Below are positions 3,001 to 55,361 of a stretch of DNA of 64,000 nucleotides, piece after piece. The stretch is from Campylorhamphus procurvoides. Lineage: Eukaryota; Chordata; Aves; Passeriformes; Dendrocolaptidae. Made by a program: the position numbers and the translations under genes. The notes under the pieces are model-generated. The model did no database searches, was not told the origin of the DNA, and worked only from the letters and a program-made list of their open reading frames with translations. The first letter of the stretch is position 1. Every line of letters starts with the position of its first letter. The DNA is taken from contig WBMV01005958.1 in assembly GCA_013396655.1 (NCBI GenBank), forward strand, positions 707,727 to 771,726, read 5' to 3'.

Positions 3001-4999
3001 GTTTAGACAGCGCTCCTCACCCCCCCAAAGCTGGCTCCTCTGCTCCATCCCCGCAGAGCCTGTGCTGCACACACACACAGCTGCAGGGAATAACTGTGGA
3101 CGTGGCACCAGCTCAAACAGGGAAATCAGACTCTCCTGTGATACCCACACGGCAGGCAGGGAGCCCCAGCTGCATCCTCTGGAGATGGAGAAAACAGAAC
3201 AGGCTTTTAGCCCAGGCTGGGAGGAAAAACGCCATCTTCAGGCTTCGTGTCTCTGCTCTGCCTCGTGAATTTGAAGCTGTCACAGATATATCCACACTTA
3301 TTACATCCACCACACCCCCCATCTTGGCATGACAGTGCCTAACTGGAAACTGCTTCAGCCTCCCCGTGCTGTCACTGTCTGTCCTCAAAACTACATCACA
3401 GGATGGCTTAATTCGAAGCTTTCAGCCCTAAAGCTGCTCAGATGCCAAGCCATAGGCCTTCAAAGCCTGGCCTCCCCGTGCTTGCCCCTTCCCTGCAGTG
3501 CCCATTTGCTCGCCTTGCTGCATGCCAGCTTGTGTGGCCACACCTGCACCCTGTCCAGCAGCCCAGCTCTGACTGGATTTGAGGGATTTGGGATCACACA
3601 AAGGCTCTGTACATCCCACCAAGTGGCAGCTTTAGGGCTTTCAAACCAAAGAGCTACCCCAGGGCAGGTTCCATGGGAAATCACCACTCGAAGCAGCCTG
3701 AGCTTTCTAGGAGATGGGGCTTGCCAAGTCATTCCTAGGTAATTTCTTAGCCATATTTACTGCATTTTTCTGTGTCACAGTCACTTACTTGGGTGAGTAT
3801 CACCCAGGCAGTCAAAAAATACCACTAAAAGTTTCTGCACTTGAGCTGATATGGCAAAAAGTACTTTCTCCAGGAGGGTTTGTCCTCCAATTGTGGTTGT
3901 ATTGCAGCCTCACCAGCCTAGTGCCATTCAAACCACAGCATAAAGCCACATTTCCTTGTTTTCCCTTTTCCCTGATGGCAGCAATGCTCTAGAAGCACAT
4001 ACCAGCACTTAATGAGGGCTGTCTTCCTAAATCCTCTAGGTCACAGGAGGACATCTGAGCTTCTGGAGGTCTCCCTCAGCATTACAACAACCTCAGTGAT
4101 GCCCCAGCCTCTATTAACTGGTGGGTAGCAAAGACACAGGAGTGGTGTCCCAGCAGGCCATGAGCACCCACATCCATTTCCCAGCTCTTTCCTTGTTGTG
4201 GGAAAGAAAATTAAATTAATTTCCAGCATCTCCCTTCACAGCAATTCTCCCCACACGTTATTTGTTGCTATCACTACTCAGGCTAAGGTACAAGCAGTGA
4301 CCACCACATGTTGAACGAGCTATCTCCCATTTTTCATGGCTTTTGTGATAAGGTAAGTGCAAACGGATAGAATGGGGGGTCTCCCACAAGGAACTGCCTC
4401 CACATCTTCTGCCCTAGCTTGATGATTCGTGTCCAAGTGCTCTGGACAGTGCTCTGCAACTAGATGAGGCTTGCCCTGCCAGCTTCAAAACCTGGGAAAA
4501 CACCCAATCAGATGAACTTGAAGCATTTGGGAAGAAGGTGTTCAAACAGGCTTAGTAAATGTCCTTAAAAAAAAAATCACCTGATGTTCAAGTACTGTCC
4601 CTCCTCTGCAGCTCCCAGGACATGTTGCAGTCTCCAAGCAAACAATGGACCCTCTGAAGCCTCTGCACACACCACAGTCATGCAGTGATAATGCATGAGA
4701 GAACATTCCTACTGCAAAAGAAAAATCATTTGTGATGGCCCATAAATCAACAGAGTGTGTCATTTCATATGGCCAAGGGCTGTGAGCAAGCAGAGTGCTG
4801 CACAGCGAGGTGACAAATTCATTTTGGATGTCAGAAGCAGCAGAGCTTTCCAGTCAATCTCTGAGTGCAGTGACCAAAATCAGATCTACAGATCCAGCAG
4901 ATTTGACTTGTTTTATTGTCTATTAATTCATTCCTCTGTAGATGAGAGAGAAGATGCCAATACCCCACCCTGCAGCAGAGGGAAGGAAGTTAAAGGTAG
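1..4999. other. Intergenic, nothing recognised
   Basis: Only short open frames on both strands, none with a recognisable domain or a chain of splice signals that joins in phase. Composition is ordinary avian intergenic DNA with short CA and A tracts. Confidence 0.5.
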
Positions 5000-5883
5000 A
5001 TGCCTCCTCAGCAAGTTCACTGAGGACACAAAGTTGGCAGGAGTGACTGATACCCCAGAGTGGTCTGGGGCAGTGCCCAGAAGTACTGGGTGTTCAGTAT
5101 GGGAGTATCCCAGAGTGCTGTGGCTTCAGAAGGACCTTGATAGGTTGGAGAAATGGGCAGAGAAGAACTTTCTGAAATTCAACAAGGGCAAATGGAGGGT
5201 CCTGCACCTGGGGAAGAACAATCCCATGTGGCAGCAGAGGCTGGGGGCTGACCTGCTGGAAAGCAGCTCTGTGGAAAATGACTTCAGAGTCCCCGTGGAC
5301 AACAAGCTGCCCATGACCCAGCAGTGCCCCTGTGGCCAAGAAAGCCAAAGGGATCGTGGCATGTATTTAGGAAGAGCACTGCCAGCAGGTCAATGGAGGT
5401 GATCCTGCCCCTCTGCTCAGCCCTGGAATGGGTCCAGTGGAGGGCAACAAAGAGGATTAAAGGACTAGAACACCTCTTTTACAAGGTCACACTGAGGGAG
5501 CTGTGCCTGTCCAGCCTCGAGAAGAGACAACTGAGAGGTGACCCTATCAATGTCTGTTGGTATCTGAGGGGAGGGTGGCCAAGAGGATGGATCAGGCTCC
5601 GCTCGGTGGTGCTGAGCAAGGGGACAAGAGACAATGGGCAGAAACTGATGCACAACGAGTTCCACCTGAACACAAGGAAGGACTTTTTTGCTATGCAGTG
5701 ACCATATGCTAGAACAGATCTTTCAGAGAGGTGGTGGAGTCTCCCTCACTGGAGATATTCCAGAACTATCTGGACAAAATCTTGTGCAATGTGCTCTGGG
5801 ATGACCCTGCTTGAGCAGGGAGGTTGGACCAGGTCACCCACTGTGGTCCCTTCCAACCTGACCCAGTCTGTGATTCTGTGAAG
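5000..5883 (+). mobile_element. CR1 LINE, 5'-truncated 3' part of ORF2 plus 3' tail
   Basis: The translated plus strand shows the C-terminal half of avian CR1 ORF2. From about 5010 there is a decayed reverse-transcriptase stretch (FTEDTKL where CR1 usually has an FADDTKL-type motif). It continues with LQKDLDRLEKWAEKNFLKFN near 5130 and VLHLGKNNPM near 5200. After a frameshift around 5330-5400 come WRATKRIKGLEHL and LSSLEKRQLRGDPINV. The end near 5820-5883 is the typical CR1 3' tail (GGTTGGACCAGGT, CCCTTCCAACCTGA, TGATTCTGTGA). Frameshifts and 5' truncation make it an inactive fossil. Confidence 0.9.
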
Positions 5884-8118: not shown

Positions 8119-8124
8119 TTTAAT
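8119..8124 (-). terminator. Candidate poly(A) signal (ATTAAA) of the CUB/SEA/EGF gene
   Basis: TTTAAT on the plus strand reads ATTAAA on the minus strand, about 340 nt beyond the stop codon at 8463. No canonical AATAAA was noticed nearer on that strand. This is inferred from position and hexamer only. Confidence 0.35.
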
Positions 8125-8462
8125 TTCATGAATTAAGCACCAAAAACATCTTATTCCCATTTTTCCTTAAAAAGGAAGTGTTTAATTTCCATGTGCTGAC
8201 AGCTCTGTGCAGCTCTTGGGCAGGGTAAATCAGCAGACATACAGTGGTGTGGAGCAAGCACTTTGTTTCCCAAGCTGCATTAGTATTAAAAAAAAAAAAA
8301 AGGAAAAAATGCCAAGAGCTGGAACACTGCTGTGGGATATTCACGGTGGGATAACACAGCGGAAGGGTTTGCACAGCCACTGGCTTGTGTCAGCTGGGAA
8401 AGGCAGGAGTGGCTGCACAGTGAGCGAGGCCATAGGGGGTTTGGGGGACATCTGAGACCCCC

Positions 8463-8782
8463 TCAGAGAGGGGCAGACTGCTCCAGGAAGACCTGGCATG
8501 CCTGGCCACGGTGGGCACGGACACTCCACAGCCACTCGGGGGGCCTGGCCCGCAGCTTCAGCTGGAAGGGGTCCAGTTGCAGGCACTCCCCCAGGTCGTG
8601 CAGCTCCATCTCTGGCTCCTCCACGGCCCTCTCCGATGGCTCCTCAGGGCCTGGGCTGCTCCTGGGGTGCCGTCCCCACGTGGCTGTCACACAGAGGATA
8701 CCAGCAGCCACCAGCATCACCAGGCTGGCCACGATGGCTGCCCCTGCCAGGATGTCACTGTGGCGGAGGAAGAAGCTGATCC
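8463..8782 (-). CDS. Exon 9 of the CUB/SEA/EGF gene: transmembrane span, cytoplasmic tail and stop
   Basis: Terminal coding exon entered in phase 1 after acceptor CTCTCTTGCAG. It encodes ISFFLRHSDILAG, then a hydrophobic span (AAIVASLVMLVAAGILCVTA). The ~70-residue tail includes an acidic patch (EEPSERAVEEPEMELHDLGE) and ends ...LEQSAPL at TGA 8463-8465. The tail has a Cys just inside the membrane, which could be palmitoylated. Confidence 0.82.
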
Positions 8783-11700
8783 CTGCAAGAGAGAGGCCGT
8801 GGCCTCATCGTGGTGGTCACTGCCCCAGTGGCCCCACTGTGCTCACAAAGTCCCCCACATTGTGACCACACTGCTCAGGAGTGACACCTGGATCTCTGGG
8901 TACTCCTCCACAGAAATCCTCACACCTGCCTCTAGGGCAGAGCATCCCAAAGAGATATTTAGACCAACAGGCAGCCTGCAGGAGCAGCACAGGGATGGTG
9001 CTACCCCAGGAGAACCCAGATAGAACAAAGCCATTGCCAAACCCACAGAGACTAAAAGACCTGTTTCCATTCCAGACCTAAAGGGACCCTTTGCATGATG
9101 ACATGGATAAAGATGAATTTATAAAATTATCTATATATGAATATAACAATAACCAGCTGATCTAGATAGGCTTAGACTGCACAAGTGTTTAATTAACTTG
9201 GAGTCAGTAGGATGGGTGAGAAATTATATATATTATATATTTTGACTCACGTTAAGGTTTAAGCCACCGCAAGGATGTGAAATAGTTTTGGTAAAGCAGC
9301 AGCAGTATTTTGAGTACATACTGCAGAATATTGCTGTTTTTCAGGTTGTGAGGCCCATTACTCTGCAAGATTGGATTAGTCATCTCTGATTCTAGTCAAG
9401 CACCAGATGCCACCTGCTCAGCTTTATGTCAAATACATGAGGGGACCTCTGGGGTAAACACCCCAGAACATCAATGCCCTTCTCACCAAGATCTACAGTG
9501 TGACAGGAGACCACAGGGCACTCCTGGGAGTGGCCCAGTTTGCTGATCACATCAGTTACAGCAGAGGTAGCTCATAAATCACCCTTGACCACACTTCGCT
9601 TGTAACTTAAAGGCTCATGCCCCAGGTTGTAACTGTGATACAGAGAAAGTAGCAGACTGGGGAAAGCGAAGCAAAGACTCATGCAAAGATTATATTCCCA
9701 GCTAGGAACTGCCTTGCAAAGGTATTATCCACCATTGCCACACCAGGCAGGGACAGCCAAAGCCACCAGTCCAATAACATCACACACAGCACACATCAGC
9801 AGAGGGGCAGCTGGCAGGACCCCACTCGAGGAGAGAGCCCCTTACCCCAGTGTGCTCACTCCAGGTTGCAAGAGCAATGCTGCTCAAACTGCTCGCCCAC
9901 GCACACGAGAAAATCCCCCAGCTGCAAGAGAAAGCAGAACTGCTCTTTCATCCCCTACCTGATCGGGGAGTGCGGATGCAGAGGGTGCCGGATTTGGTGG
10001 GAGAATGGTCCTCATAGTCCTTTTTGCAGCGGCACAGGTAGGTGCCCACACCATTGAAGCACTCGGCCTCCTCCCCGCAGAGCCCGACCCCAGCACTGCA
10101 CTCGTTCACGTCTGTAATGGGGAATCGACACCCTAAGTCGAGCCTTGGCATAACGGGATTTATCCCACAGATAAAAAGTGAAACACCCACCTTCAACAAA
10201 CAGTGAAACGAGCTGCAGCTCCTCTGCTCCTGGTGAGGTGCCAAGCAGCTCCTCCAGCTGGGAGTGCAGGAGCAGAGACACGTTCCTCTCCTCTGGCTTC
10301 AGGTGCAGCCAGAAGGTGAGCAGCAGGTTGGCATCTCCTGTCCTGCAGGCAGGGGAGAGCCCAGGGTAAGGCAGGCCCAACTCTGACAGCCCATTTAGAC
10401 CTCCCACCTGTTCCTACTGGATTGTGGTGCTGCAGGATCTTGCAAAGGTTATTTGTGGCAAGAAGCAGCTTTTGCACTTGGACCAAGGGAAAAGGAAAGC
10501 CCAGCTGCTCATTTGGAGTAAAGTGAATTGTACTGGCAATGTGCAGTCCCAGGTCAGCCCCAGCCAGCTGTGGCAGCGACCTTGCTGACAGCTCCCAGCT
10601 TTCTCCAGCAGGCACTGTGGCAGGTGTAGCCTCATTTTCTTCCAGAGTTTAAATCCATCTTAGACCTATATAGGTCCCAGCTAGCACTAAACATCAATTT
10701 TCACCATGCTTCCTCTAGAAAACAGTTTTTCTCTTTCTCTGCTTTCAGGATGAATTACAAATCACAGGAGAGGAGCAAGCACAAGTCTCTGCCTGGGGAA
10801 GGAGAATGAGAACCCAGACACTGCTATCCAAGAAATAGGATAGGTTATAGCAGTCACCTGCCCAGCCAGCAGCACAGCAGGAACCCTACCTTTTGATATC
10901 CTTTAACTTTATTTCACTGACTCTGTTGGCAGAAAGTTTCAGGTTCTTCTGTATCTGCAAAGGAACAGAGTGACCAGTGCTGATTTGACATTTGACAGGA
11001 GTATGACAGCAGTTTCTTTTCTTCATTCTACCTCCCCATCCTGCTCTTCCCCTCCACAAACCACCTGGGATGCAGCAGACCCCATAGCCCACTGCTCTGA
11101 GCCTTTTCTTCGGGAGAATACTGGTTGTTCCCACCTGCTTAGCTTCAGTTCAACTTCCCCAAACACACAGGTTAATTTGGAAAAAGGAAGGGCAGTAGCA
11201 GCCCCAGGTAAGGGGGTACAAAGCCATTGCAGAGCAGCAGTTGAAGTACAGCAGCTTTCTAGGTGAAGCAGCAGGCTGAACCCTGTACCTGCTCCAGTCT
11301 GCATCCCAGAAAAAAGTTTAGGTGCAGCCCTGAAAGCAGATGCTCACACATTTGCCCCACTTTTAGGCTTTGGCTACAAGCTGCCCTATTTCCAGAGGCA
11401 AGTTACAGCCCTCAGCTGGTTGTGTTCCTGTCTCTAAAGTGCTTTTCTCCTGCTTTGTGATGGTATTGTGCTGTGAAGGGTTAAATATCAGCTATTGCAC
11501 CCAGGCACCCCTGCCAGGCATCAGAATTGGCCTCAGATGATGAGCAGCACAAACAGCTCGGATACTGGTTCATCATGTGGCTCTAGCAGAAAATCTCTGG
11601 AACAAATGGCACAGCATGGTCTCTCCTAGTTGAAGATTTGGGATGTCACACCTGGTTTTCTCCACCTCCCCATACCCAGACTTACATGGTTCTTTATGGA

Positions 11701-14700
11701 TTCAAGAAGACCCTTTCGGAGCTCGCTTCCAGCAGGAGGAATCCAGTCCTTGGGTTTGATTTCGATAGTTACTTCAAACAGCACATCTACCAGAAGACAC
11801 AAGATCCTGGCATGTTCAAATCCACCTAACACCAACAGGCTCCTTAAATGAGTTAACCCTTAAACATCAGGACTAGCAGAACAGTTCCATGAGGACATGC
11901 TTGTGCAAGTCAGTGCCACGTGGCTATTTCCAGAAGCTACACATCAGGTAGAACGAGTTGTTGAGTAACAGGTGAAAACAAACCTTAGTTAATGCTCATT
12001 GCTGAATACTAGAATTGACCCTTCAGTGAAAAAAGAGTAAAAACCAATAATGCATGTCTGATCACATTCACATGTCTTTAGTTACTGTTTCCCAAAGGTA
12101 TTGTTATAATCTGTGATGGAGTCTAAAAGCACATTTCTCTTGCCCATCCCTTGGATCAGCTTAGGTAAACTGCAGTGGTCTGGCTGAACCCAGGCTGGCA
12201 CAGATCTGCCAGTCTGCTGTTTCAAACCTATTTATTCATTAATACTTCTCCTGTTCAGAGCTCAGGCTCCTTCTGCATTGATTCCTTTTTTCAAGCTGTT
12301 TCTGTGGCTTGCTCTACCATATAAGCCCAACATTATGCTGCCTTAAGGGGGTTTTGCTTCTTTCCCTGGTCTGAGGAACAGGATTTCTGCAGGTTTCTGA
12401 TCCCAGTAGTCACAAGACATCCATTGGAATATACTGGAGGAACTGATGTTCATTCACCTTAGAAAAAATCTTCTTTAAATAGCCAACAAGTAATGCTGAA
12501 ACTTGAACAAGCCAGCATTTATGTCAGGTTTAGCACATGAACTCAGGTTTTTCCAGGGGAGGTAAAAAGTGGCCAAAGCACAACTGTGGGCTTGCAATGC
12601 TATCATAAAAACTAACACCTTCAAAGTGGCCACTGCTCAGAAACAACCCCCACTGATTCCTAAACTTAAGGAGCAGGTGACGTCCAGCACACCCCCAGTC
12701 AGCTCATTGAACTTCAGACAGTGTTTTAAGACATGCTTAACTCCCTGTGTGACTCACCCCCGGGATGGTGCTGGGACTGCAGTGCTGTGCCATTCTCCAG
12801 GGATGCCAGGGCAGAAACCAGGTCTGTCAAAGAAAGGGAAAGCATCAGGCTGCTGTCCTCCATGCACCAGTAACAGGGGAGGGAAAGGACATTAGGTCTG
12901 TGTCACTTTGCAAGAAGAGTGCACTGTACCAGCTCCTTGGTTTTTTTTTTATTCTTTGTACTGAAATTAAATATCAAGCTGTAAATACAATCTACTCTCC
13001 TCTATAGTGCAAAGTGCTCTTTAGGAAGAAATGACCCCAATAAACCTCATTTCCATTTCTGGAAGCAGATGAAGTGTTATCCTTGTGAAGCCACCAGAAC
13101 TGCCTCAGACCCCAATGAAGGAAAACACCTTGTGCATTACATGCCAGCAAATGCAAAAAAAAAAGTGAATAAAATCTACAATGGAGGGACAGGAACAGTT
13201 TGGAGGGGAGGAAACACCAGTTGAAAACATCTTCTCTTCTACCTTCCAGTAGAAATTAATACCTATCAGTGGCTAAATATTTCTGTGAAAGTAGTCTGCC
13301 AGCAACTCTTAAAACTTTCTTAGGAAGAAAGTTTTTTTTCTCCCCTTCCTCCAACTTCTGGAGCTCAAGCTCAGTGATCGTGCCTGGGACAGGATACATG
13401 GGAATCAATGCAAGCCAGAGGCATTTAAAGCCAAGGAGAACATTCAGGCTCTGCTTTGGGTATGAAGTCACAGCAGGCTCCTCCATGGATAATTCAAAAT
13501 GCTTGGATTAGAAACTAGCCTGTCCCTATTATGAGTAGCATCATCCTATAGGTGTCCATGTTACAACAGACAATCCTATGTCTTCTCAAGTACTTCCCAC
13601 CTTGGATAAAGGAACCAAAAGTGCTCTACCCACACAGACCAGCTGGAGGTAACAGCCGTGTCTACAAATAAAACCTCTTAACAGAGTGATGCATCACTGG
13701 AGATGGACATTGCAGTGTCAGGCATCAGTTCAGCCACAGATAACCCCAAAAAAACACCTTACCAAAGAGCTCTTCAGTCCTTTCCCCCAGAGACACCGTA
13801 CCACCAGCAGTCACACCAGGAGAGGGGTGGAAGGGAGGTTCTGTACTGGTGTCCAGTGGTGCCTCTTCCAGCACTGGTGTCTGCACCGCAGCCACTTCTG
13901 ACAGGCTGTCACTGGCCTGACCCAGGCTAGGTGATTTGTCAGAGACACCCACGTTGCTGCTGGGCACCTCCGAGACAGGAAAACCCCCTGAGTGACTTGG
14001 GACTATGGTGGCCAGGGCAGTCACTGGCTCTACATCCCCCTTGGTCGGCTCCAAGGCAGAGGGCTCAGCTTTACACCCAGTGTCTTGCCCAGCTGGAACT
14101 GCCTCATCTTCAGTTTCTTTGCCCTCAGTGCCACCATCCCTAAGGCTCTTTTCCATCTTGGTTTCATCCTGGACCTGACCATGCTCACTTCGGTCAAGCC
14201 TGCTCAGGCTAGCACCAGACTGAGCATCTCCCCTGAGGTCAGGAGGGTATTGGGTCTCTCCACCTGGGTGCACCAGCTCAGGCTGGATCCTGCCACCAGC
14301 AGGTGGAGGTGGTGGGTCCGGAGAGGCACCCGGCTTGGACAGAAAACCTTTTGTTGCCACTGTGCTCCCGCTCTCTTTTTCAGAAGTCTCCTGGACAGAC
14401 TCTCGGGGAGCTGTTGTGGTGTCGTTTGAAGAGCCCACAGTTTCAGGGTCTCTGAACACATGATACTGTCCTTTAAAATATCTGTATTCATGGCTTTGGG
14501 AGCCACTCCCTGACAGAAACAACACCTGGACCTCAGTGGCTCGTGTGGCAAAGATGAGAGTGCCTCTGTTGTGGCAGGCATACACCACTTTGGTTTCCAC
14601 GCTTGATGAGACCCCCTGGAAGATGATCTTGTCCTGGTTGTTGCCACAGCCATCATTCCCCTCAAACCCCTGGACATAGATGACAATGTGCTTCTGGGGG

Positions 14701-17700
14701 CCTGCCCAGATGGTCCAGTTGCACCAGATGCTGGTTTTAGTGTCAGCACGCAGAGGAAGGTGAAACATCCCAGACCCATTCTGAAAGATGAGATGGCAGC
14801 TCCTGAGGGGAAAATACTCCATTGTCCAAGGAGCTCCCAGCTCTGATACACCAGGAACAGAGAAAAGAAACATGTAATCCAAGGTTATTATATGCACCAA
14901 AACAACATGGATATCACACACACAAAGTGCTGCAAGTTGCCACAAGAGAGGCACCATTTCAGACCCTCTCCTGCTGCAAGATTTCCATAGCTTCAGCCCC
15001 TGGAGCCACATACCCACTCTACAATTGGAGCTGGAGCTTCTGTGAGAGGCTGCACAACACAGTCAATGCCCGTCAGCTCCAAGATGGACTCAACACTGAC
15101 CACGGCCAAGTCCATCATCAAAGGTGGTAGTGCCTCAGGGATAATGTGGTTAAGTAGGGGGAAAAAATCTGCTGCACAACAGCAGCCACAAGGGAGGAGT
15201 GGACTGTGTGGGGGGAACAACTCTGCAGACACCAAAGTCAGTGCAGAAGGAGGGGACAGCAACTGGTGACTTGACCCACAGATCTTTCATTATACTTCCC
15301 ACCCCACCCCCTTTCCCACTGGGCAGGGGAGTGAGAACAGATTTGGTGGACACCTGGCATCCAGACAGGGTCAACCCACTCCACCTATCCCCAGAGAGCA
15401 GGTTATGATTGCCAGGTGGAGTCTGCAGATGAAAGACCCAGCCTTGGCTTTGCCCCCACCAGGTACTTCTGCCTTCTAAAGATGTCCTAGACCAATATTC
15501 AGAGTACTGGGAGACCTACCAGCATGTTTCCCTTGATGTCCTTCTGGCATCTGGGTGTTTCTGGATACATCAGAGGGTTCCCAAGGCTTTTGGTCTCTCG
15601 GCAGTGTTTCTCCCCATGGGGCTGCAGGGAGATCAGGGTGTGCAGGAGTGGTGCTGAAGGAGGCAGTTCTGTGCTGTCCTGCACCCACCTGAAGAGCTTC
15701 CGTGGTTTTCTGCATTTTAAATCCCCCAAGAAGGGAGGAAGAAGCTGCTTTGTCACTAACAGCTCTGCCCTGGTGCTGCCCAGGCACCATGTGCTCCTCT
15801 CTCCTCACCCCCCAGATGTCAGACAGGGAAACTGGTGCCACCCCAGAGCCACTGCTCACATGGCCCTTGGGCTGAGGAAGTCCCACACCAGGCCTTGGGA
15901 CAGTGACAGAGGCTGGGGAGGGACTCCTGGCCATCAAGCCCACCGAGGCTGAGGTTTCTGCCCCCTGGCCACCTGCCTCTCCCAGCACCAACTTTTGCAC
16001 CCCAGGGCCAAGGCATCCATCTGTGCCCCGTTCAGAGCCCACTGTTGAGTGGCAAGGTGGTGAAGGGAAGACCATCTCCTGCCCTCCTGGGCTAGCTGGG
16101 GAGATGTCCACCTTTTGCCTGGGACTGACAGGGTCCAGATCCAACACAGCTGGTGGAGAGGCCACCTTGGACACAGGCTCCACTTGCGGAGGAAGAGGTG
16201 GTTCAAGAATTAAATTTGTAGAGCCAAAGTCTTCAGGGACAGGTGCTGTGCTGGAGGTCACCAGCACAGGGATTGTTTCTGTCCCTAGGACAGCCGTGTG
16301 GGTGAGAGGATGTTCCAGCCCTGTTGGCAAAACATGTACAGCCAGCCCTGGCCATGCAGCATTGTCACTGTGGTGGTGGCAGCTTTGTACACCCAAGGAA
16401 GACACATGAGCTTTCTCAACAGCTGGACAATCATGTGTTTGGGCATTTTGGGGGAAGCTCCCAGGCTCTGTAGGGTCCAAGTGCAGGACATGACTGCTCT
16501 GGCCATGCAAATGAGGGTGCTCTTGCAAGACGTCCCATGGTGCTGTGGGCTGCAGCACTGTTTTCCTCTTGACAGCTTCCCTAGAACTTTCCAGTGAGGA
16601 AATATCCATGAGCCTTTTATGCTGAAGGCCAGTTGTTCCCAGCTCAGATTTCGGCATGGACAAATGCCTAAAACTGCTTTGGCGTCTTGGGCTTCTCTCA
16701 CGTAGCAGATGCAAGTGGTCCCTGTTTCCCACTTCATAGGGGCTGTTCAGGCTGGGCACCAGGCCCCTTGCAAGGCCATCAGCTTTATGGCTCAGCTGGG
16801 CATGGCTTTCACCCTGTTCTAAGCTGGCTGTGCTGAGCTGCTGGTTCATGGTGGTACCTGTGCTTGCTTGGCTTTCCCCTCTGCCAGGGGGCACAGACTG
16901 TGAGCGTGCAGCCAAGTCCAGGCAACTCACACGTGTTGGTTTAACAGTGAATTGTAGGTCACCCAGACCTTTTGGCTTCAAGGTAGGGTTCAGGACAGGC
17001 TGGCTGCTCTCCAGGCTCACACCTGCTGGCTGCAAAAGAGGTTCTGCTGCCTGAAAAGCACCAAGCAAAGGAGTTTCCAAAAGCACACTTGAAAGCCTGG
17101 GCATATAACCAAACCCCACAGTGATGTCCCTGCTCACAGAGAGACTCTGCCCCCAGGTGTCCTGTGCTGCAGTGGGGATTATGCCCTCAGGTGTTCCTAT
17201 GCCTTGAGCTTCCTGAGCCTCTGGAAGCACCAGCCTCAGCCCACAAGGAGCTTTTGTTTCCAGAAGCAGTGTCCTTGCCCGTTCACAGGGGATAAGCTCA
17301 GCAGGACTTCCCCCAGCCACAGTACCCAGAGTGATCCCTCTTCCCTGCATCAGCTCTCTGCTTAGCACTGTGGTCTCACCAAGGTTTATAGTGCTATGTG
17401 TGGTTGCAAAGCCCAGTACATTCCTAAGGCTTTCAACCCAGCCAGGGTGAAAAATATTGTCTTGCTTTGGTAGTTTTGGAGCAGGACTTTCAGAAACTGC
17501 ATCATCTTTGGAGGAAGATTCACCCTCCTGGTCTTGGAAGATGTAGTACTTCCCTTTAAACTGTGCATCTCTGCAGTTTGGTAAGTACCTCTTCAGCAAC
17601 ACAACATGGACAGCCTGGGCAAAGGTGGCAAAAACATGCATCTTCTTTTTCCAGCAAGCATAAACAACAGTGTTTTCCACCAGGGAAGAAACTCCTTCAA

Positions 17701-19686
17701 ACAGAATTTTGTCCTCATTTTTGCTGCAGTCCTCCTTAGTGACAAAGCCCTGAATATAAATTATTATATGCTTTCTGGAGCCTGCCCAGATTGTCCAGTT
17801 GCACCAAAAGCTTATGGGGAAATCACCACGGTATGCTGGGGGAGAAAATTCTCCATACTTGTCCTTCAGAACTCTGTGGCAGCTTCTTATAGGCACATAT
17901 GCCAATATCCATGGAGAGTCTGGCTCTGGAAGACAAGAAGCAACAAGGAAGTTTTGCCCATTTTTGTTCCCATGAAAAAGTGACCAGCCCTTATTCCCAG
18001 AAGTTATTTTCAAGGTCACTCCGTTCCCCATTTTGCTACCTCCCACTCCTGTTTGTCAACCAGCATGCAAATCCACCAGGAGACCATGCAAGTAACCCCA
18101 TGCCAAGCCCCATGGTCAAGGGGAGGAGGCCACCTGAGCTGCACCCACACACCAGCCTAGGGTGAGCCTAAAACTGCCAACCCTTCCAGCCTTGGAAACG
18201 ACTGTTTCCATCCAACCCATCCCAAACTTCACCCCACCTGTGTGTGCCACTCCAGAGCACCTGGAAAGCTGGGGAAGCCCTGGCCACCACCTCCTCCTGC
18301 TCCACATGGAGCCAGGCTGTAGCCCCACTGCTACCACCCCAGAGCGGGGGACACTCATGTTTTATGTCCCCCCTGCCATGGCCATGCAGGAGCACAGAAG
18401 TCCCAGCACAGCTACACAGTGGGTGCCACTGATCCCAGGGAAGCAAAATCTCATCTTCAGGGTTGGGCTATTTAGGGTTCAAAGCTAAAGACTCGGGGAG
18501 TTGCCACATCTGGGCAAGTTTCAAAAGCAGTGAGTGCACTGCTACATTTGGTTTCAGCACACAGGTGATGTTTGTTGTTTATACACCTGCAGAGATGGGA
18601 GATAAAGCTTTCCTCAAGGTGGTTTCAGTCTCTTAGGTTTAAAGGGCCCAGCCAAGCCAGAAGCACTGGCTAGACTCAGTAGGATAAACAACATTAATAC
18701 CTCCTCATAGCCCTCAAAGTGGGAAAACACCTTCCCTTAAGCAGGAAGAAATACAGTGTTTCCCGAAAACATATCTCCAAGCTAGAAGAGTCACAGGTTT
18801 GTGATAGGCTTTACCCCACAGGGGCACAATTAAAGTTTGGGTTGAACTTTTGCTACTTGTTTTAATTGCTGCAGTGCATTGCTCCTGCCTCTAGGACCTG
18901 CCCTGTGGTAGGGATTTGGCAGCCACAAGATAGTGGCACAGGTTATCTCCCAGCCCAGCACCCAGTAGTGACCAGCCACATCCCCTTCCCTCTCCATACC
19001 ACCCCAGGGCCAGGTTGTTGCTTCTGATTTTCCACACCACTTATTGTTGGCTTGACTTACCCAACAAATTCTGGGTAAAAAAAAAAAAAAAGAGGCTGGC
19101 CTGAGAATTAACTCTTACCTGGTTTAACCTTCTGATGTTCCTGAGAGGATCCCCATGCCTACAAAGAAGAGAGACTCCTATTGCAGACTCATATACCACT
19201 GTCCATGTTTATAATGCTGCTCAGAGAAATGCCAATCCAAACCCAGTGGGAAGGGAGTGCCAAATCCACCATGGTGCACTGGGGGTTTGCCTGCACCAGG
19301 ACCAAGCCCCAAAGGCACCCCATTTATTCTATGCAAGATGATCAATCTTCATCCTCCCTGCCTCCAGAAGCATTGCCTGATTTACACTGTTGAACCCCAA
19401 CCAGTGCAAAAACATCCCCAAAACACTGCAAGTAAAGCCCAGCTGTGCTTTCATCTATAAGGGCCATGCAGAGGAGAAAAGGACTTGTAAACAGGCAAGA
19501 CACTGCACCCAAGAAGGGAGTTTCCTACAGGGAACTGAGTCCCTGCTTCCCATCACTCACCCCTGGAGGAGCACCAGCAGCATCAGGGTAGGACCTCAGC
19601 ATCACCCCTGGAGCCTGCCCACCACCAGCTGGCCCCCAAAGCACCAGGAGCAGGACCAGGGGCAACAGGCAGGGCAGAGGTTTCAT
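8463..19686 (-). CDS. Unnamed mucin-like type I membrane protein: signal peptide, 2x CUB-like, SEA-like, EGF, TM (9 coding exons)
   Basis: I assembled this model from GT-AG signals and phase. In minus-strand order the exons are 19561-19686, 19119-19158, 15520-17925, 13763-14842, 11686-11786, 10890-10954, 10191-10342, 9959-10111 and 8463-8782. They total 4443 nt, giving 1480 residues plus TGA with every junction in phase. Domains: signal peptide about 1-24; CUB-like 1 about 56-187; a Ser/Thr/Pro/Gly-rich stretch to about 857; CUB-like 2 about 858-990; a second such stretch to about 1217; SEA-like about 1218-1323; EGF about 1324-1368; membrane span about 1385-1409; tail 1410-1480. Both CUBs share the motif WCNWTIWAG, which contains an N-glycosylation site. 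Family knowledge suggests a cell-surface or secreted-side adhesion or mucin role. I do not know a named orthologue. Long introns, no frame breaks and consistent splice sites argue for a live gene. No in-frame nonsense was seen. Confidence 0.82.
9959..10111 (-). CDS. Exon 8 of the CUB/SEA/EGF gene: calcium-binding-type EGF domain
   Basis: 153 nt, phase 1 to 1, the classic phase of shuffled EGF exons. The acceptor is CCCCATTACAG and the donor GTAGGGGATG. It encodes DVNECSAG, six cysteines, ECFNGVGTYLCRC and GTLCI. The DVNEC start and the N...Y/F pattern fit a calcium-binding EGF. Confidence 0.85.
10191..10342 (-). CDS. Exon 7 of the CUB/SEA/EGF gene: end of SEA-like domain
   Basis: 152 nt, phase 2 to 1. 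The acceptor is GCCTGCAG and the donor GTGGGTGTTT. It encodes TGDANLLLTFWLHLKPEE and then LHSQLEELLG...LQLVSLFVE. The strand after the turn is present, but the usual autoproteolysis GS-hydrophobic motif is not: TGDANLLL stands in its place. Confidence 0.75.
10890..10954 (-). CDS. Exon 6 of the CUB/SEA/EGF gene: middle of SEA-like domain
   Basis: 65 nt, phase 0 to 2. The acceptor is CTGTTCCTTTGCAG and the donor GTAGGGTTCC. It encodes IQKNLKLSANRVSEIKLKDI followed by K and a split Arg codon, the position where SEA domains place helix 1 end and strand 2. Confidence 0.75.
11686..11786 (-). CDS. Exon 5 of the CUB/SEA/EGF gene: start of SEA-like domain
   Basis: 101 nt, phase 1 to 0. The acceptor is TTGTGTCTTCTGGTAG and the donor GTAAGTCTGG. 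It encodes VLFEVTIEIKPKDW and LRKGLLESIKNH, matching the first strand and helix of SEA domains. Confidence 0.78.
13763..14842 (-). CDS. Exon 4 of the CUB/SEA/EGF gene: CUB-like domain 2 plus acidic/Pro-rich tail
   Basis: A 1080-nt exon, phase 1 to phase 1 (acceptor ...GGTGTATCAG, donor GTAAGGTG). The first ~130 residues mirror exon 3: LRSCHLIF, SIWCNWTIWAG, IVIYVQGFEG, DKIIFQGVSSSVE, VVYACHNRG, LIFATRATEVQV and FKGQYHVF. The tail is rich in Ser, Thr, Pro, Glu and Gly with many potential O-glycosylation sites and ends in TEELFG. Confidence 0.85.
15520..17925 (-). CDS. Exon 3 of the CUB/SEA/EGF gene: CUB-like domain 1 plus ~670-residue low-complexity tail
   Basis: A single 2406-nt exon, phase 1 to phase 1. 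The acceptor is CTTGTCTTCCAG and the donor GTAGGTCTCC. The first ~130 residues form a CUB-like fold pattern: RSCHRVL, GEFSPPAY, WCNWTIWAG, IIIYIQGF, DKILFEGVSS, VVYAC, HVFATFAQAVHVV and FKGKYYIF. Cysteines fall near residues 71, 97, 122, 146 and 173. The rest is rich in Ser, Thr, Pro, Gly, Gln and His without an obvious tandem repeat, as expected for a poorly conserved O-glycosylated stalk. The open frame continues upstream of 17925 into the intron, but that part lacks CUB sequence and is not used. Confidence 0.85.
19119..19158 (-). CDS. Exon 2 of the CUB/SEA/EGF gene: 40-nt micro-exon
   Basis: The acceptor CTCTCTTCTTTGTAG lies directly before GCATGGGGATCC, and the exon ends CCAG before donor GTAAGAGTT. 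It enters in phase 0 and leaves in phase 1. That is exactly the shift needed to join exon 1 (ends phase 0) to exon 3 (enters phase 1). It encodes AWGSSQEHQKVKP plus the first base of the next codon. Confidence 0.75.
19561..19686 (-). CDS. Exon 1 of the CUB/SEA/EGF gene: start codon and signal peptide
   Basis: The ATG at 19686 has G at -3. The frame extends upstream to 19713 only through non-ATG codons, so this ATG is chosen. It encodes MKPLPCLLPLVLLLVLWGPA, a clear signal peptide with a likely cleavage near GPAGGG. The exon ends at GGG followed by the strong donor GTGAGT, phase 0, after 42 codons. Confidence 0.85.
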
Positions 19687-20852: not shown

Positions 20853-21293
20853 TCCCATAGAAGCACAGAATCTTAGAAAAGCACTCTAAGATCACCAAGT
20901 CCAACCATTAACCCACCCCTAAATTATGACTCTGACCATCACTTTTAAACCTCTCCAGCAATGGAGTCCTTGTCCTTATGGGGGACTTTTGGGTTGCCAG
21001 ATGTTAACTGGGAACACCACACAGCTGGCTCAAACAGGTTCTAAAGATTCCTAAAACACATGGATGATAATTTCATGGTACAAGTACCAAGAGAGCTGAC
21101 TAGGAAAGATGCCCTCCTTGATTTGTTGCTTGTTAACAGAGAGGGTGAAGTGGTGGTTGATGGCCATGTTGGCCACAGTGACCATGAAGTAATCGTGTTT
21201 AAAATCTCTGTTGGCAGGAGGAAAAGTGCAGCTTCAACCCTGGCCATGAGGAGAGCAGACTTCAGGCTGCTCAGGGAACAAAGTGAGCAAGGA
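20853..21293. repeat. Copy 1 of a 441-bp duplication flanking a single N
   Basis: Starts TCCCATAGAAGCACAG and ends GTGAGCAAGGA. It matches 21295-21735 with no difference found by eye, with only one N between the copies. It is most likely a false duplication from an unmerged contig overlap. The content is CR1-derived. Confidence 0.9.
20858..20960 (-). mobile_element. CR1-like 3' tail fragment, antisense
   Basis: On the plus strand the stretch AGAATCTTAG...GATCACCAAGTCCAACC is the reverse complement of the usual avian CR1 3' end (GGTTGGACT...CATTCTATGA type). It is duplicated near 21302-21402 by the assembly repeat. Confidence 0.55.
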
Positions 21294-22770
21294 NTCCCAT
21301 AGAAGCACAGAATCTTAGAAAAGCACTCTAAGATCACCAAGTCCAACCATTAACCCACCCCTAAATTATGACTCTGACCATCACTTTTAAACCTCTCCAG
21401 CAATGGAGTCCTTGTCCTTATGGGGGACTTTTGGGTTGCCAGATGTTAACTGGGAACACCACACAGCTGGCTCAAACAGGTTCTAAAGATTCCTAAAACA
21501 CATGGATGATAATTTCATGGTACAAGTACCAAGAGAGCTGACTAGGAAAGATGCCCTCCTTGATTTGTTGCTTGTTAACAGAGAGGGTGAAGTGGTGGTT
21601 GATGGCCATGTTGGCCACAGTGACCATGAAGTAATCGTGTTTAAAATCTCTGTTGGCAGGAGGAAAAGTGCAGCTTCAACCCTGGCCATGAGGAGAGCAG
21701 ACTTCAGGCTGCTCAGGGAACAAAGTGAGCAAGGAGCCCTGGGGAAATGAAGGCGTTGGGGTCCATCAGTGCTGGGGTCCCCCAGTGCTGGTCACTTTAT
21801 AAGAACCATCTGCAAAGGACCCAGGAATAGACAATTCCTAAATGTCAGAAATCAAGCAGACAAGGCTGGCTTGGCTGAGCAGGGATCTTCTCTTGGAGCT
21901 ATGGCCAAAAAGGAAGGTGTATGCCCAGTGGAAGCAAGGTCAGGGAATGTGAGAGGAATGCAGGGGTGCTGTCCACCACTGCAGAGAGAACATTCATGCA
22001 GCCAAAGCTCAGCTAGAGCTGAAGCTGGCCAGAACCTGGGGGCAGGGGGACAATTAGAAGAGTTTTTTAAAATATGTTAGTAACAAAAGGCAGTGCAGAA
22101 ATAACATCAGCCTGTTACAGGGTGGGATTGGACACCTCACAAACAGGGAGATAGACAAGACAAAGAAGTTTAATGCATTCTTTGTCTTCAACAGTGATGA
22201 CAAACAAGGGGGGTCCCAGTGCCCTGAGCTGCAGGACCAATCCAGTGAGAATGATGAACTCCCAGACAACCCTGATCTGCTGCTCCAGCTGGACCTCCAT
22301 ATGGGGCCTGATGGGATTAATTTGAGAATACTCAAAGAGCTTTTGATGTCATTATGAGGCCTCTCTCCATGATTTTTGAACTGTCTTGGGAATCTGGAGA
22401 GGTCCCAGTTGACTGGAAGCTGGCGAGCGTTGTCCCAGATTTCAAGAAGGATGACCCTGGAAACCACAGGCATGTCAGTCTCACTTCAGTGACTGGAAAA
22501 TTATGGAGAAGATTATTCTGGGAGGTATTGAAAAACTGAAGGACAGTACAGTCACTGGTCACATCCAGCACGGCTTCAGGAGGGGAAAGTCCTGCTTATC
22601 AAACCTGATTTCCTTTTATGACAAGGTCACCCACCTAACTGACCCAGGGAAGCCAGTTGATGTAATCTTTTTGGATTTCAGGAAAGCTTTTGATACCGTC
22701 TCTCAGAGGATCCTTCTGGACAAAATGTCCAGCACGCAGCTGGATAAACACATTATGCAATGGTCACTGC
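20961..22770 (+). mobile_element. CR1 LINE ORF2 remnant: endonuclease end and reverse transcriptase start
   Basis: Near 21090-21280, and again at 21530-21720, the translation gives LTRKDALLDLLLVNREGE and GHSDHEVIVFKISVGRRKSA, the C-terminal endonuclease region of CR1 ORF2. From about 22350 it gives LSWESGEVPVDWKLASVVPD, GHIQHGFRRGKSCLSNLISF and PVDVIFLDFRKAFDTVSQRI, reverse-transcriptase blocks. It breaks off after LDKHIMQW near 22770, before the catalytic YxDD block. Frameshifts (for example between 22440 and 22510) and the assembly duplication interrupt it. Inactive. Confidence 0.88.
21295..21735. repeat. Copy 2 of the 441-bp duplication
   Basis: Same start, same end and same length as 20853-21293. 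The CR1 reading frame continues from this copy into unique sequence after 21735, so this copy is the one continuous with the downstream element. Confidence 0.9.
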
Positions 22771-25700
22771 TGCACAGCAGGGAGGTCCCTAAGGCATCAT
22801 CTGGAGAGCAGGAGCTTTTGCTTCATTTTAGCTTAACAGATGGTAAAGATGGTGAAATAAATCAAAAAGCCAAGTTTATTTTTTATTTGCTGATAGGTAT
22901 TTGAGTGAGGACTTTTAATGTGCAGGGGTTTTTGTGTTTGTTTGGTAACAATTCTTTGAGTTTTAGCCTATTTCCATAAAAACATCAATACCCATTAGGA
23001 TGTTTGTCCCCTTTGACTGAATCCTCATGCTCAGCAGTTGCTGATTCTTACTTATTTTGGGGCCACCTGGCCCAAGAGTATCTCTCAGAGGAGAGCTGGT
23101 GGGCATGTTCCCACTGGCCTGTGCCAGATTGCACTGACTCTGCCCTATGGGGCAAAACCTCTAAATTGCCTATCTCAGCCTTTCTATCAGCTCCTGCACT
23201 CCTGATTTCTTGGGATGGGATTGAATGTCTCCCAGGATGAGCTGAGGGACCCAACATGACCTTCAGCAGCCAAGCAGCCTCCTCAGGCTGCCAGGCATCA
23301 GGGCTGGCCACAGCTGCTAAGAGGGACACAGCCACCCTGGGGGCTGCCAGACAGTCCACAAAACTAAGCTGATAGCAGCAAGTGCTCATATTTCCTCCCC
23401 AGGCAGCAGGATGTACTGGGAGCTCCTCCTCACAACTCTTCTGCTGTCATTTATAAAGGCACCGTAGACTGTCTGAGAGCTTAGGATAGATAAATTTAGC
23501 ATCTGCCTCCCTCTAGTGATTGCATTGCTGAATAAAAAGAAAGCGAAAATCACACTGGGCTGTAGTTACTTTTATTCGCTTACTTAGGAATTCAAAGTAA
23601 CTGAATACTTTCATTTTGCTTGTTCATGATTCTCTTATGCACCAAAAGCAAGCAGGAAGAGCTAGAGGAGTGCAAGAAATTAGGATTGTGCTCACTGTCT
23701 CACTAATTAGAGTGACTAAGGTTCAAAACAAAGGGTAACATGGATGACAGCTAAAAGCTGCTGCGAAACAAACATCTTTATCAAATATGAGAATACTTTT
23801 TGGGAAAAATGGTAGCATCACTGGCAGACTGTTTTTTTTAACATGTCTCAAAAGCTGTTGTATTCTTTAGAGCTTAGCAAGGCACACAGTGAAATTCAGG
23901 GATGTGTCTGAGGTGCCCATCCCAACAGCTCCATCCCTCTGAGTGAGCTGACGAGCACTCTGCTTGCAGGGGCTGCTTTATTATTTATACATATATTATG
24001 CAGAAGGAGATCCCTGTATTTAGTGACCAGGCATAAGCAGCAGGTTAGGTCCCATTTCTTTGTGTCACTCATTAGCCAGATTGATTCTAGGTCTGTTGGG
24101 GAGAAAGATGCAATTACACTCTTAGATACAATTAAAGCTAAGGGATTTCTCAGGAGCTGATGCTTTCCTTAAATAGGGAGCTGGATTTCCTTGTTCACCA
24201 GTTGCTCTTCACTGATTCACTGCTAATCCTCAGGATAATGCTCAGAGATGTTTTAAATGAGTAATGCCATCATGCTCCAGTTTATCCTGGTGAGTGTTTT
24301 ACCCGTGGTGATGGTGAAGGGTAATATTATTAATAAAATTGACGTATAGTTTAAACTTTACATATAGTTCCAACTTTGCATTTTGTGGGATTTGTATTGA
24401 CTAGTAGCACAGATTGTACACCTGCAAGACTTGTGAGGAGAGGAGTAGCATGGAAGAGCTGAAGTGGTTTTGCTCTGGGCTTTCTGAAGCCTTCAAGGCA
24501 CTTATTCCTTCTTTATCCCAGCTTGGAAGTCTGTGGGCACTATTATTTAACCTCAGTGGAAGAATGCTATAGGATCCATATGCAACTTGACCTAAAGATT
24601 CCTGCTGTTGTCTTTTCCACAACTGAGCTGTGACAGGCTTGGTTAGACCTACTGATGTATCCACAAAACAAGAGCTGCTGGTCCTGACCCACTTCTGACC
24701 TCCCACCTCACCTCAAAGGATGCTCCTGCTCCCCAGAGGAGCAAAACCGGTTGTACCAACACCACAGTTGTCTCCTACTGCAGCTGGAAAGGAGAAATCC
24801 AGCTGAAAACAGCATTGCTCAAACTAAATAAAATAAAACCCACCGAGAAGTCCAAGTTTAGCACACACCTTGCAACATCTTGTTTAGCCCATGAGGGAGT
24901 CCTCAGGTGTTGGCACTCCATTTTTTTCCCCATGCAATTATCCTGTGCAACAGAAGGGAACTCATTCAGCTGCCAGAGAGAGCATCTCCTTGACACCTTC
25001 CTCTGCCACTTCAGCTCATTAGCAAGGCAGGAAAAACATCCCTGCTCTTTCTTTTTTTTTCCTTGCAGGGTGACTTTTCTTGCTTCTTCATCATAAGGAC
25101 TCGCAGCAGCCACTGCTGCTGCCCAGCAGGTCCAGAAAAGCTGCTTGCAACCAAAAAAGAAGCTGAAAGGTGCCAAGGTGGGTTTGGTGAGGTGGTTCAC
25201 CTGGTGACCAGAGGGACAGAGCAGCCATCACCCCAGCCAGGGATTTATGCCCTCTGGTCTCTCCTGGCAGGGGCAAACATTGCCCTTCTGCCCCACATCA
25301 GGAGGATGGTGGCGAGTGAGAGGGTTGATGGCCATCATTTCCACACCAGAAGATTCCAAAGCCAGGGGACACATGGGAGAACCAGCTTTAGAGGACCTGG
25401 GAGGGCTGGCATCCTGTTGGGCACGGACAGGCTCATCCCATTCCTGGGATGGCTGCCACCTTCTGCACACCCCCAGCTGCAGGAAGAAAAGCCAGAACAA
25501 AACCCCTGTGGCAATGATGCCCCAGCCCTGGCCAGGCCGTGGATTCTGGTGGGAGCAAACCCATGGTGCAGGCAGCTTTGAGTCCTGCAAACCACTGCAA
25601 AACTGATTTATATTAAAAATAAAGAGCACACAATACCGAAGTGGTTGGCGTTTGTCTATTAATCTCTCAACAGTCAGCTGCAAACCTAACAAATCCTCTG

Positions 25701-28700: not shown

Positions 28701-29469
28701 TGTTTTCAACAAATAGATCTGTTTGCAGCAGAACAGGATCTTGCATCCCCTGGTGAGACTGGTTGGTGTCTCTCAGCCACCAGCACCCATCAAAAATCCC
28801 CCTGGTTGGATCATTTGTGCTCAGCTGGGTGTTGTGGGGCTGATTTGTACAAAGCCTTGGGGTCTCCAGCCCTGATTTGGATGAAAATGGCTCACCCACT
28901 GCCACTCCTGCCCTGGCAACAGGCTGGCTGGGGAGCAGAGGGGCTGAGGTAGTCAGCTGCATTATTTAAATGCAGAAGTAGTTTGACAGCCAGGCTTATG
29001 GCAAATGATCCTAACGAAAAGCAGCTGCCTCATGCCTGTAAACAGGATTGTCTGTGCAGCATTTTGCCCTAATAGAGTAAAATCAGAAGATAGGAATTTT
29101 CTCTTTGAATAGAGAAAAAGACTTGCATCTCAAATCTGGTTTGGAAGACAATCTGTATCTGAATGCCCCAGCATCTGCAAAAAACTCAGCACGGAGCACT
29201 CAGATTATCTCAAACAGCCTTAAATACCTTCCCTTGCCTCCAGCCACTCTGTAAAACCCTCTAGCAAGAGAGACACACTTCATGTCACGCAAACCTCTGC
29301 TTGCAGACTTCCCTTGCTCTCCCAGGCTGGTTTCTCTGCCAGGTCCCTCCTTGTTGGCCTCCCCACACTCTTGCTGGTGGCTCATCCCCAGCTGGGTTTC
29401 TGTGGTACGGCCACAGACAAAAAAAAGCCTGAGCTTTGGGACTGTCATTCTGGGGAGCTTCATGACAGC
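22771..29469. other. Intergenic, nothing recognised
   Basis: No domain-bearing frame and no consistent exon chain on either strand. AT-rich stretches near 23.5-24.4 kb are free of recognised repeats and could hold conserved noncoding DNA, but nothing in the sequence alone proves it. Confidence 0.4.
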
Positions 29470-40454: not shown

Positions 40455-41648
40455 TTAACAATTTAAGTGTGGATCTTGCAAGCGTGTCCAAATCTTAATC
40501 ATTTCTTGAGGTTTTCTACTGTGTACTAACATTAAGTTTGTGTAGGAACATATGTTATTTCTGTATTTCTCTTCGATATCAAACGTTTTGAAGCCTTTGT
40601 GTTTTTCCGGAGCAAGCCCAAGCTTCTGAAGGCACATTCCAGTATAAACATCATCAATAGGGTAAAGGAGTACCTGGTCAGATGCATTATTCAGTCTTAA
40701 TGCCAGATCACCAGAGTACAGAAACCCACCCCCTCCTGCATAGGGAGGGTACGAACCTTCATAAACACTTTCTGGGATGTAGTACTTCAATTTTTTTTCT
40801 CTGTGAGGTCCAGCATCTTTGATCACATCACCTATAAATAAGTCTTTGGCTTTTTCCTTTGATAAGCTCTTCAAGTAATCCAGGATCTGATGGGTATTCA
40901 CGAAAACATCATCATCACCCTTAAAAATAAACTGGACGTTCGCGCAACTGCTGCTGACCCACTTAAGGAACAGCACCTCTTTCAGAGTCAGATTGAAGAA
41001 AGTATCTCTGTAGTTCCAGAGGAGAATGTCTCGGTGGGTTTCACTCTCAAATTTCAGCATGTGTGAAAGATCAGGAAAATGATCCTCTGGTGGGGTCTGT
41101 CCAAGTAAGAAGACCCTTTTGACTATCACATCCCCTGATTTCATTTCCTTGCCCCAGGATTCCCTAATTGCTTGCCTTCTATCAAAATGGGGGATAAGTG
41201 ACTTAATAGCCAGCAGCAGAAAAGGTTTGTGTTCGCACTTGTTTGGCTGATCCATTAACAGCGAATAATTTCTACATCTCAAATAAAGTAGAAAGTCTTT
41301 GAATCTGTCTGGCAAGTTTGCAAAGTCACTAACCTCTGAAGATACCCACGGGTCAGGGTCACAGGAACTGAGAGCACTCAAGTTAGAACTCAAGTTCTCT
41401 TCCACAGTCATGTTGGAAAGCAAGGCCAGAATAGGGTTGTACAGCAGTTCAAGCTTCTGTTGCTGTTTGTTCCAATAAGCTTTGTGAGGAGTATATTTTC
41501 TCCAGAATTTGCTACGTGGTATAACAACGCGGCCTTTTGCATTCTTCTCTTGGCTGCCACTTTTTGAAACTTCCACAATCACGTAGATAAAAATGTTTAC
41601 CATCATCAGAATTCCCAGCAGCTTTAATCTTCTGCGTCCAACACTCAT
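40455..41648 (-). CDS. B3GNT2: UDP-GlcNAc:betaGal beta-1,3-N-acetylglucosaminyltransferase 2
   Basis: A complete 397-residue type II Golgi enzyme, the same length as the mammalian protein as I recall it. It adds beta-1,3-GlcNAc to terminal galactose and so extends poly-N-acetyllactosamine chains on glycoproteins. A short basic N-terminus (MSVGRRRLK) is followed by a membrane anchor about 9-27 (LLGILMMVNIFIYVIVEV), a stem, and a GT31 catalytic domain from about 140. Visible GT31 motifs: RQAIRESWG (158-166), the metal-binding DDD in FKGDDDVFVN (245-247), PYAGGGGFLYSGDLA (302-316) and IDDVYTGMCL (331-340). N-glycosylation sequons lie at 79, 85, 89, 127 and 219. The coding region is intronless. 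The ATG lies 9 nt inside the exon, whose acceptor ends TTTATTTCTAG. No damage seen. Confidence 0.98.
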   Translation of the reverse strand: MSVGRRRLKLLGILMMVNIFIYVIVEVSKSGSQEKNAKGRVVIPRSKFWRKYTPHKAYWNKQQQKLELLYNPILALLSNMTVEENLSSNLSALSSCDPDPWVSSEVSDFANLPDRFKDFLLYLRCRNYSLLMDQPNKCEHKPFLLLAIKSLIPHFDRRQAIRESWGKEMKSGDVIVKRVFLLGQTPPEDHFPDLSHMLKFESETHRDILLWNYRDTFFNLTLKEVLFLKWVSSSCANVQFIFKGDDDVFVNTHQILDYLKSLSKEKAKDLFIGDVIKDAGPHREKKLKYYIPESVYEGSYPPYAGGGGFLYSGDLALRLNNASDQVLLYPIDDVYTGMCLQKLGLAPEKHKGFKTFDIEEKYRNNICSYTNLMLVHSRKPQEMIKIWTRLQDPHLNC

Positions 41649-55360: not shown

Positions 55361-55361
55361 C

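What the first reader, a model, noticed from the sequence alone, without database searches (positions are those of the whole stretch)
8463..19686. Unnamed 1480-residue CUB-CUB-SEA-EGF membrane protein next to B3GNT2
Nine exons join without a single phase conflict and give signal peptide, two CUB-like domains each with a long disordered stalk, SEA-like, EGF, membrane span and tail. I know no named vertebrate protein with this order, and mammals have no gene I recognise in the equivalent place beside B3GNT2. It could be a bird or sauropsid surface mucin or adhesion protein lost or highly diverged elsewhere. The domain calls rest on motifs; the absence of a name is my limit, not proof of novelty.
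Basis: partly seen in the sequence, partly recalled or inferred. Interest (0 to 1): 0.8.

Follow-up and report, generated by a model that had tools for sequence, protein, structure and literature searches.

The report
Unstudied vertebrate CUB-SEA-EGF surface protein
The sequence holds a real but unstudied cell-surface protein gene that fish, reptiles, birds and marsupials share, with sticky CUB heads on long stalks above a probably cleavable hinge at the membrane, and which may be missing from placental mammals.

Summary
The gene is real. All nine reported exons reproduce, but a 66-nt exon at 12758-12823 was missed; the full model has 10 exons and 1502 residues. It is no bird or sauropsid novelty: the 192 relatives listed include birds, turtles, crocodilians, lizards, four marsupials, a frog and many ray-finned fish ('zgc:66455'). 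One CUB in 7 of 7 fish and the frog checked, two in 18 of 18 amniotes; the tree fits one duplication in stem amniotes, with modest support. CUB is shown by Pfam, profile and fold, EGF_CA by Pfam. SEA is likely, not proven: Pfam does not call it, but the best solved-structure matches are SEA domains. The SEA loop carries furin-type RxKR/RxRR in 112 of 120 fish and 4 of 4 marsupial proteins, only a dibasic pair in 51 of 55 sauropsid ones. Likely mechanism: ligand-binding CUB heads on long tethers above a cleavable, separable SEA hinge, as in GPR126. No paper on it was found in the held library. Loss in placental mammals is suggested, not shown.

The parts
19561..19686 (-). Exon 1: start codon, signal peptide, N-terminal segment
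   Evidence: signal peptide judged by eye
19119..19158 (-). Exon 2
   Evidence: GT-AG, phase 0-1
15520..17925 (-). Exon 3 (2406 nt, phase 1-1): CUB1 plus the whole first stalk
17531..17920 (-). CUB1 domain (aa 58-187)
   Evidence: Pfam CUB, best stretch aa 71-129, 4.4e-7 for the whole protein; CUB profile matches cubilin and Gpr126
15521..17530 (-). Stalk 1, 670 aa, 18% S+T
   Evidence: 26% order-promoting residues, but the charge-hydropathy value is on the ordered side
13763..14842 (-). Exon 4 (1080 nt, phase 1-1): CUB2 plus most of stalk 2
14448..14842 (-). CUB2 domain (aa 858-989); AlphaFold2 model made of 14433-14840
12758..12823 (-).
11686..11786 (-). Exon 6: SEA-like domain, first part
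10890..10954 (-). Exon 7: SEA-like domain, second part; ends inside the dibasic KR
   Evidence: the Arg codon spans the exon 7/8 junction
10191..10342 (-). Exon 8: SEA-like domain, C-terminal part
9959..10111 (-). Exon 9: calcium-binding EGF domain
   Evidence: Pfam EGF_CA 1.3e-6, 1e-7 on the piece
8463..8782 (-). Exon 10: transmembrane helix (about 8688-8759), cytoplasmic tail, stop codon
   Evidence: TM segment judged by eye
8119..8186 (-). Candidate poly(A) signals (ATTAAA starting at 8186 and 8124)
   Evidence: motif only
40455..41648 (-). Neighbour: B3GNT2 coding exon, same strand, about 21 kb upstream
   Evidence: Pfam Galactosyl_T 1.4e-41; 95% over 326 aa to P0045, named B3GNT2 in UniRef

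Best explanation
This is the bird orthologue of the uncharacterised vertebrate gene zgc:66455, a type I single-pass membrane glycoprotein. Shown: ten-exon gene, two CUB domains, EGF_CA, relatives with the same order from fish to marsupials, one-CUB form in the fish and frog checked. Likely: SEA domain between stalk and EGF. Inferred: the CUB domains are ligand-binding heads held far out from the membrane on long stalks; the SEA domain is the hinge where the ectodomain is cut by a proprotein convertase at RxKR (fish, marsupials) or perhaps at KR (birds), stays together, and can be pulled apart or shed by force or ligand, as described for GPR126 and Notch. In the window each CUB plus its stalk is encoded by one symmetric phase 1-1 exon (the end of stalk 2 by exon 5), so duplication of that exon adds a second head without breaking the frame; this most likely happened once in stem amniotes.
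For: Exon model; 192 relatives; CUB by Pfam, AF2 and structural alignment, profile to Gpr126 3.9e-7 and to cubilin 1.7e-14, the latter summed over four weak repeats; EGF_CA (8, 37); the SEA-like region's best PDB match is 2e7v, a transmembrane-protease chain known to me as a SEA domain (E 0.037, 0.18; 0.0068 as the last of 41 hits of a profile that also held EGF), and hhalign gives P 0.0012 and 0.0043 to a four-sequence alignment (82, 84) whose profile finds agrin (0.0016) and mucin-16 (0.0037), mucin-1 only at 0.31; RxKR/RxRR in 117 of 181 SEA-bearing proteins, 112 of 120 fish and 4 of 4 marsupial; CUB tree; CUB, SEA and EGF identities exceed both stalk identities in 11 of 11 amniote comparisons; fish-bird neighbourhood from one goby model fused to a B3GNT (51); four unnamed models of 598-651 aa on contigs of 1904-2132 bases, as expected of cDNA (17).
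Against: Pfam SEA is reached by none of 10 and none of 20 members scanned, hhalign probabilities are low (20% and 8%), and the AF2 test of SEA could not be run. Pfam CUB falls below its cut-off in the bilby, gar and frog proteins. The window's loop is KDIKR, not a furin consensus; two suboscine birds have KS. Stalk 1 lies on the ordered side of a charge-hydropathy plot, so its flexibility is not shown. Junctions 1-4 are gapless in only 9, 25, 26 and 17 of 39 bird proteins. No expression, ligand, localisation or cleavage data. The frog placement rests on 87/88 support and one gene model that starts at its CUB and may be truncated; marsupial CUB1 is not joined to sauropsid CUB1 in the tree.
Confidence: 0.72

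Rival explanations
1. A transmembrane mucin (MUC1/3/12/13/17 type): glycocalyx barrier protein whose stalks are densely O-glycosylated, with the CUBs as decoration.
For: Same membrane-proximal order SEA-EGF-TM as several membrane mucins (recalled); long extracellular stalks.
Against: Stalk S+T only 18% and 21%, P 10% and 11%; no tandem repeats found; GSVVV-like motif in 3 of 181 SEA regions; CUB is not a mucin feature (recalled).
Confidence: 0.12
2. A shed factor: the SEA/KR site is cleaved constitutively and the CUB ectodomain acts in soluble form, the membrane form being only a precursor.
For: RxKR in fish and marsupials; the GPR126 paper proposes released fragments as possible ligands.
Against: Cleaved SEA domains of GPR126, Notch and mucins are reported to stay associated; a membrane span and, in sauropsids, a partly conserved tail are kept; sauropsids lack the furin arginine.
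Confidence: 0.12
3. Exon-chaining artefact or pseudogene: chance open frames joined by chance splice sites.
For: No RNA evidence from this species was available.
Against: 859-aa frame versus 271 maximum in 40 simulations; full-length relatives in many genomes; junctions 5-9 gapless in 32-37 of 39 bird proteins.
Confidence: 0.01

Closest known systems
zgc:66455 (ray-finned fish relatives, uncharacterised)
   Same: CUB, stalk, SEA-like, EGF_CA, TM, tail in the same order; one goby model is fused to a B3GNT, so probably the same neighbourhood
   Different: One CUB and mostly 520-800 aa instead of two CUBs and 1502 aa; furin-type RxKR in the SEA loop; different tail
ADGRG6/GPR126 ectodomain
   Same: CUB head plus SEA domain with a convertase site in the b2-b3 loop of the human protein; its CUB is the second-best solved-structure match of the CUB profile
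   Different: GPR126 has pentraxin, HormR, GAIN and seven helices; here long stalks, EGF and one helix
Membrane mucins MUC3/12/13/17 and IMPG2, UMODL1 (recalled)
   Same: SEA followed by EGF
   Different: No CUB in those; mucin repeats absent here
Enteropeptidase and matriptase-type proteases
   Same: Contain SEA and CUB (recalled); enteropeptidase matches the CUB profile at 2.7e-5
   Different: Type II orientation and a serine protease domain (recalled); none here

Membership tests
zgc:66455 orthologous group | Full-architecture similarity | tested here: met
zgc:66455 orthologous group | Position beside B3GNT2 in other classes | tested here: inconclusive
   seen only through one goby fused model and one flycatcher fused model
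CUB domain | Pfam CUB above gathering score | tested here: met
   30.6 bits against 21.4 in the window protein; below cut-off in bilby, gar and frog relatives
CUB domain | CUB beta-sandwich fold | tested here: met
Calcium-binding EGF | Pfam EGF_CA above gathering score | tested here: met
   29.0 bits against 27
SEA domain | Pfam SEA sequence signature | tested here: not met
   0 of 20 members at E up to 10, 0 of 10 at E up to 1
SEA domain | Profile similarity to solved SEA domains | tested here: inconclusive
   best PDB match is a SEA chain at E 0.037 and 0.18; hhalign P 0.0012 and 0.0043 with low probability
SEA domain | Ferredoxin-like SEA fold | not tested
SEA domain, autoproteolytic type | G-S-V-V-V cleavage motif | tested here: not met
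   GSVVV-like motif in 3 of 181; not in the window's KRTGDANLLLTF
Transmembrane mucin | Ser/Thr/Pro-rich tandem-repeat domain | tested here: not met
Adhesion GPCR (ADGRG6-like) | GAIN domain and seven-helix domain | tested here: not met
   Pfam lists neither at E up to 10

The most novel reading that the evidence does not exclude
zgc:66455 is an ancient bony-vertebrate family of convertase-primed, force-separable CUB receptors that doubled its ligand-binding head once in stem amniotes, lost its furin arginine in sauropsids, and was lost altogether in placental mammals, so that the human 2p15 gene desert near B3GNT2 is the place where it used to be (that the desert lies next to B3GNT2 is recalled).
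Probability: 0.35. Interest if true: 0.6.

Novelty: new variant of a known kind. Interest (0 to 1): 0.45.

Why it matters
If right, a cell-surface receptor family kept from fish to marsupials has escaped study, perhaps because humans and mice lack it. Its single-exon CUB-plus-stalk modules give a clean case of receptor growth by exon duplication, and the RxKR to KR change in the SEA loop is a natural experiment on convertase cleavage of SEA domains that can be tested in zebrafish and chicken.

Tried and rejected
Extra exon around 10345-10640: an open frame but I saw no good acceptor, and the frame without it continues as in the relatives; dropped. Mucin reading: rejected on composition and repeats. 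Bird or sauropsid-only origin: rejected by fish, frog and marsupial relatives. B3GNT2 fusion proteins P0045 and P0068: taken as gene-prediction fusions, used only as evidence of neighbourhood. Literature: searches returned no papers; the papers listed are not about this gene by title, and of these I looked only into PMC6839265 (passages), PMC6954182 (passages; section 11) and PMC10687090 (passages, not used); of 24 papers ten were listed and one seen (PMC5426703, passages); rows of its own query alignment (P0050, P0057, P0059, P0067, P0134) were not returned, so its silence on placental mammals is weak; one search listed 120 of 236. A first SEA-loop count measured 123 of 193 and was replaced by the profile-based count of 181 of 193; the pattern counts a match anywhere in the 28 residues before the Trp, and 'fish' are P0068-P0187 by name, four of them unnamed. 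One A8 member matched Pfam RGS-like at 0.0047 and single members other unrelated families, taken as chance. NCBIfam, Rfam, tRNA (88) and PADLOC scans found nothing.

Full report
The observation. The nine exons were rebuilt from the window alone and join exactly as reported: minus strand, GT-AG introns, compatible phases, 1480 residues and one terminal stop. The largest exon sits in an 859-aa open frame, against a maximum of 271 aa in 40 first-order Markov simulations of the whole window.

The correction. Relatives carry about 22 more residues just before the SEA-like domain. The matching exon is in the window at 12758-12823, 66 nt, phase 1-1, with good splice sites, encoding DLVSALASLENGTALQSQHHPG. 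The corrected protein has 1502 residues in ten exons. Of 67 sauropsid models examined, 52 have the SEA start with a recognisable form of this segment before it (36 by strict motif, 16 by eye) and 15 had no SEA start by the pattern; of those 15, three still have the first SEA strand, one with a variant of the segment (P0021), one with a different sequence there (P0032), and one (P0191) reading as a direct exon 4-6 join. Skipping may therefore occur.

What it is. A search with the nine-exon protein gave 68 relatives (7993 candidates scored), a core-profile search 236 of which 120 were listed, and a marsupial-led profile search 11: 192 different proteins in all. By name they are mostly uncharacterised proteins of birds, turtles, crocodilians, lizards, four marsupials and one frog, and in ray-finned fish often 'zgc:66455'. 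One turtle entry is named fibrillin-2 and one fish entry NELL2, apparently from the EGF domain. None of the named entries listed is from a placental mammal, but the candidate caps and the 116 unlisted hits make this weak, and no placental genome could be searched. Passages of PMC5426703 name seventeen selected human 2p15 genes in the order COMMD1, B3GNT2, TMEM17, EHBP1 and speak of a gene desert in 2p15; this fits absence from humans but does not show it.

Constraint. Against Sarcoramphus papa, identity is 92% in CUB1, 84% in CUB2, 88% in SEA, 98% in EGF, but 72% and 67% in the stalks; against the opossum 55, 51, 38 and 65% against 21 and 31%. Stalks are 18% and 21% Ser+Thr and hold no tandem repeats. 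By charge and hydropathy stalk 2 is on the disordered side and stalk 1 on the ordered side, though both have few order-promoting residues (26% and 20%, against 39-45% in the domains). Across 39 bird proteins the exon junctions 5-9 are gapless in 32-37, junctions 1-4, which lie in poorly conserved parts, in 9, 25, 26 and 17.

Evolution. Of 26 proteins picked, 7 of 7 fish and the frog have one CUB and 18 of 18 amniotes two. In a tree of these 44 domains all 18 amniote CUB2 rows group together (91/97), the 14 sauropsid CUB1 rows group (95/97), marsupial CUB1 is left unresolved beside them, and the frog CUB lies outside all 36 amniote CUBs (87/88), with the root at the midpoint. One duplication in stem amniotes is the simplest reading, with modest support; the frog model starts at its CUB and may be truncated. 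Both CUB-plus-stalk exons are phase 1-1 in the window, which would allow it. A goby model fused to a B3GNT (54% over 278 aa to the window's B3GNT2) suggests the neighbourhood is old.

The cleavage site. A SEA profile found the region in 181 of 193 proteins (192 plus the window). RxKR or RxRR stands within 28 residues before the conserved Trp in 117: 112 of 120 fish (four of them unnamed), 4 of 4 marsupials, 1 of 6 lizards. Only a dibasic pair is left in 58: 37 of 39 birds, 7 of 7 turtles, 2 of 3 crocodilians, 5 of 6 lizards, 5 fish, the frog and the window (KDIKR). Six have none: two suboscine birds with KS, and four that look cut short or misjoined there. GSVVV-like motifs occur in 3 of 181. 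In human GPR126 the (R/K)-X-K-R site lies in the b2-b3 loop of SEA, the cut halves stay associated, and force or ligand may part them (PMC6954182, passages, section 11). The same logic is the best mechanism here; it is inference.

Verdict. A real, conserved gene family with an uncommon domain order; no paper on it was found in the held library. Interesting mainly for its neglect, the likely stem-amniote duplication and the testable SEA cleavage.

Noticed in passing
window 20853-21594: A 300-nt direct repeat, 100% identical, whose second copy starts right after a single N at 21294: looks like an assembly join that left an overlap in twice.
   Followed up: partly
window 22458-22901 (+), 4749-5402 (+), 29227-30021 (+): Transposon-like frames: the first matches Pfam reverse transcriptase 4.3e-9; the other two look like CR1 fragments by eye but match no Pfam family.
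   Followed up: partly
window 54001-56000: CpG-rich stretch (CpG o/e 0.72), perhaps the B3GNT2 promoter; the 2-kb bin holding the CUB gene's start is CpG-poor (0.06).
   Followed up: no
P0045 (flycatcher), P0068 (goby): Gene models that run from inside the B3GNT coding sequence into this gene; probably prediction fusions, but read-through transcripts are not excluded.
   Followed up: partly
P0002, P0016 (suboscine birds): The SEA-loop KR is KS, so even the dibasic pair is lost.
   Followed up: no
window exon 7/8 junction (10890 and 10342): The arginine codon of the SEA-loop KR is split by an intron.
   Followed up: no
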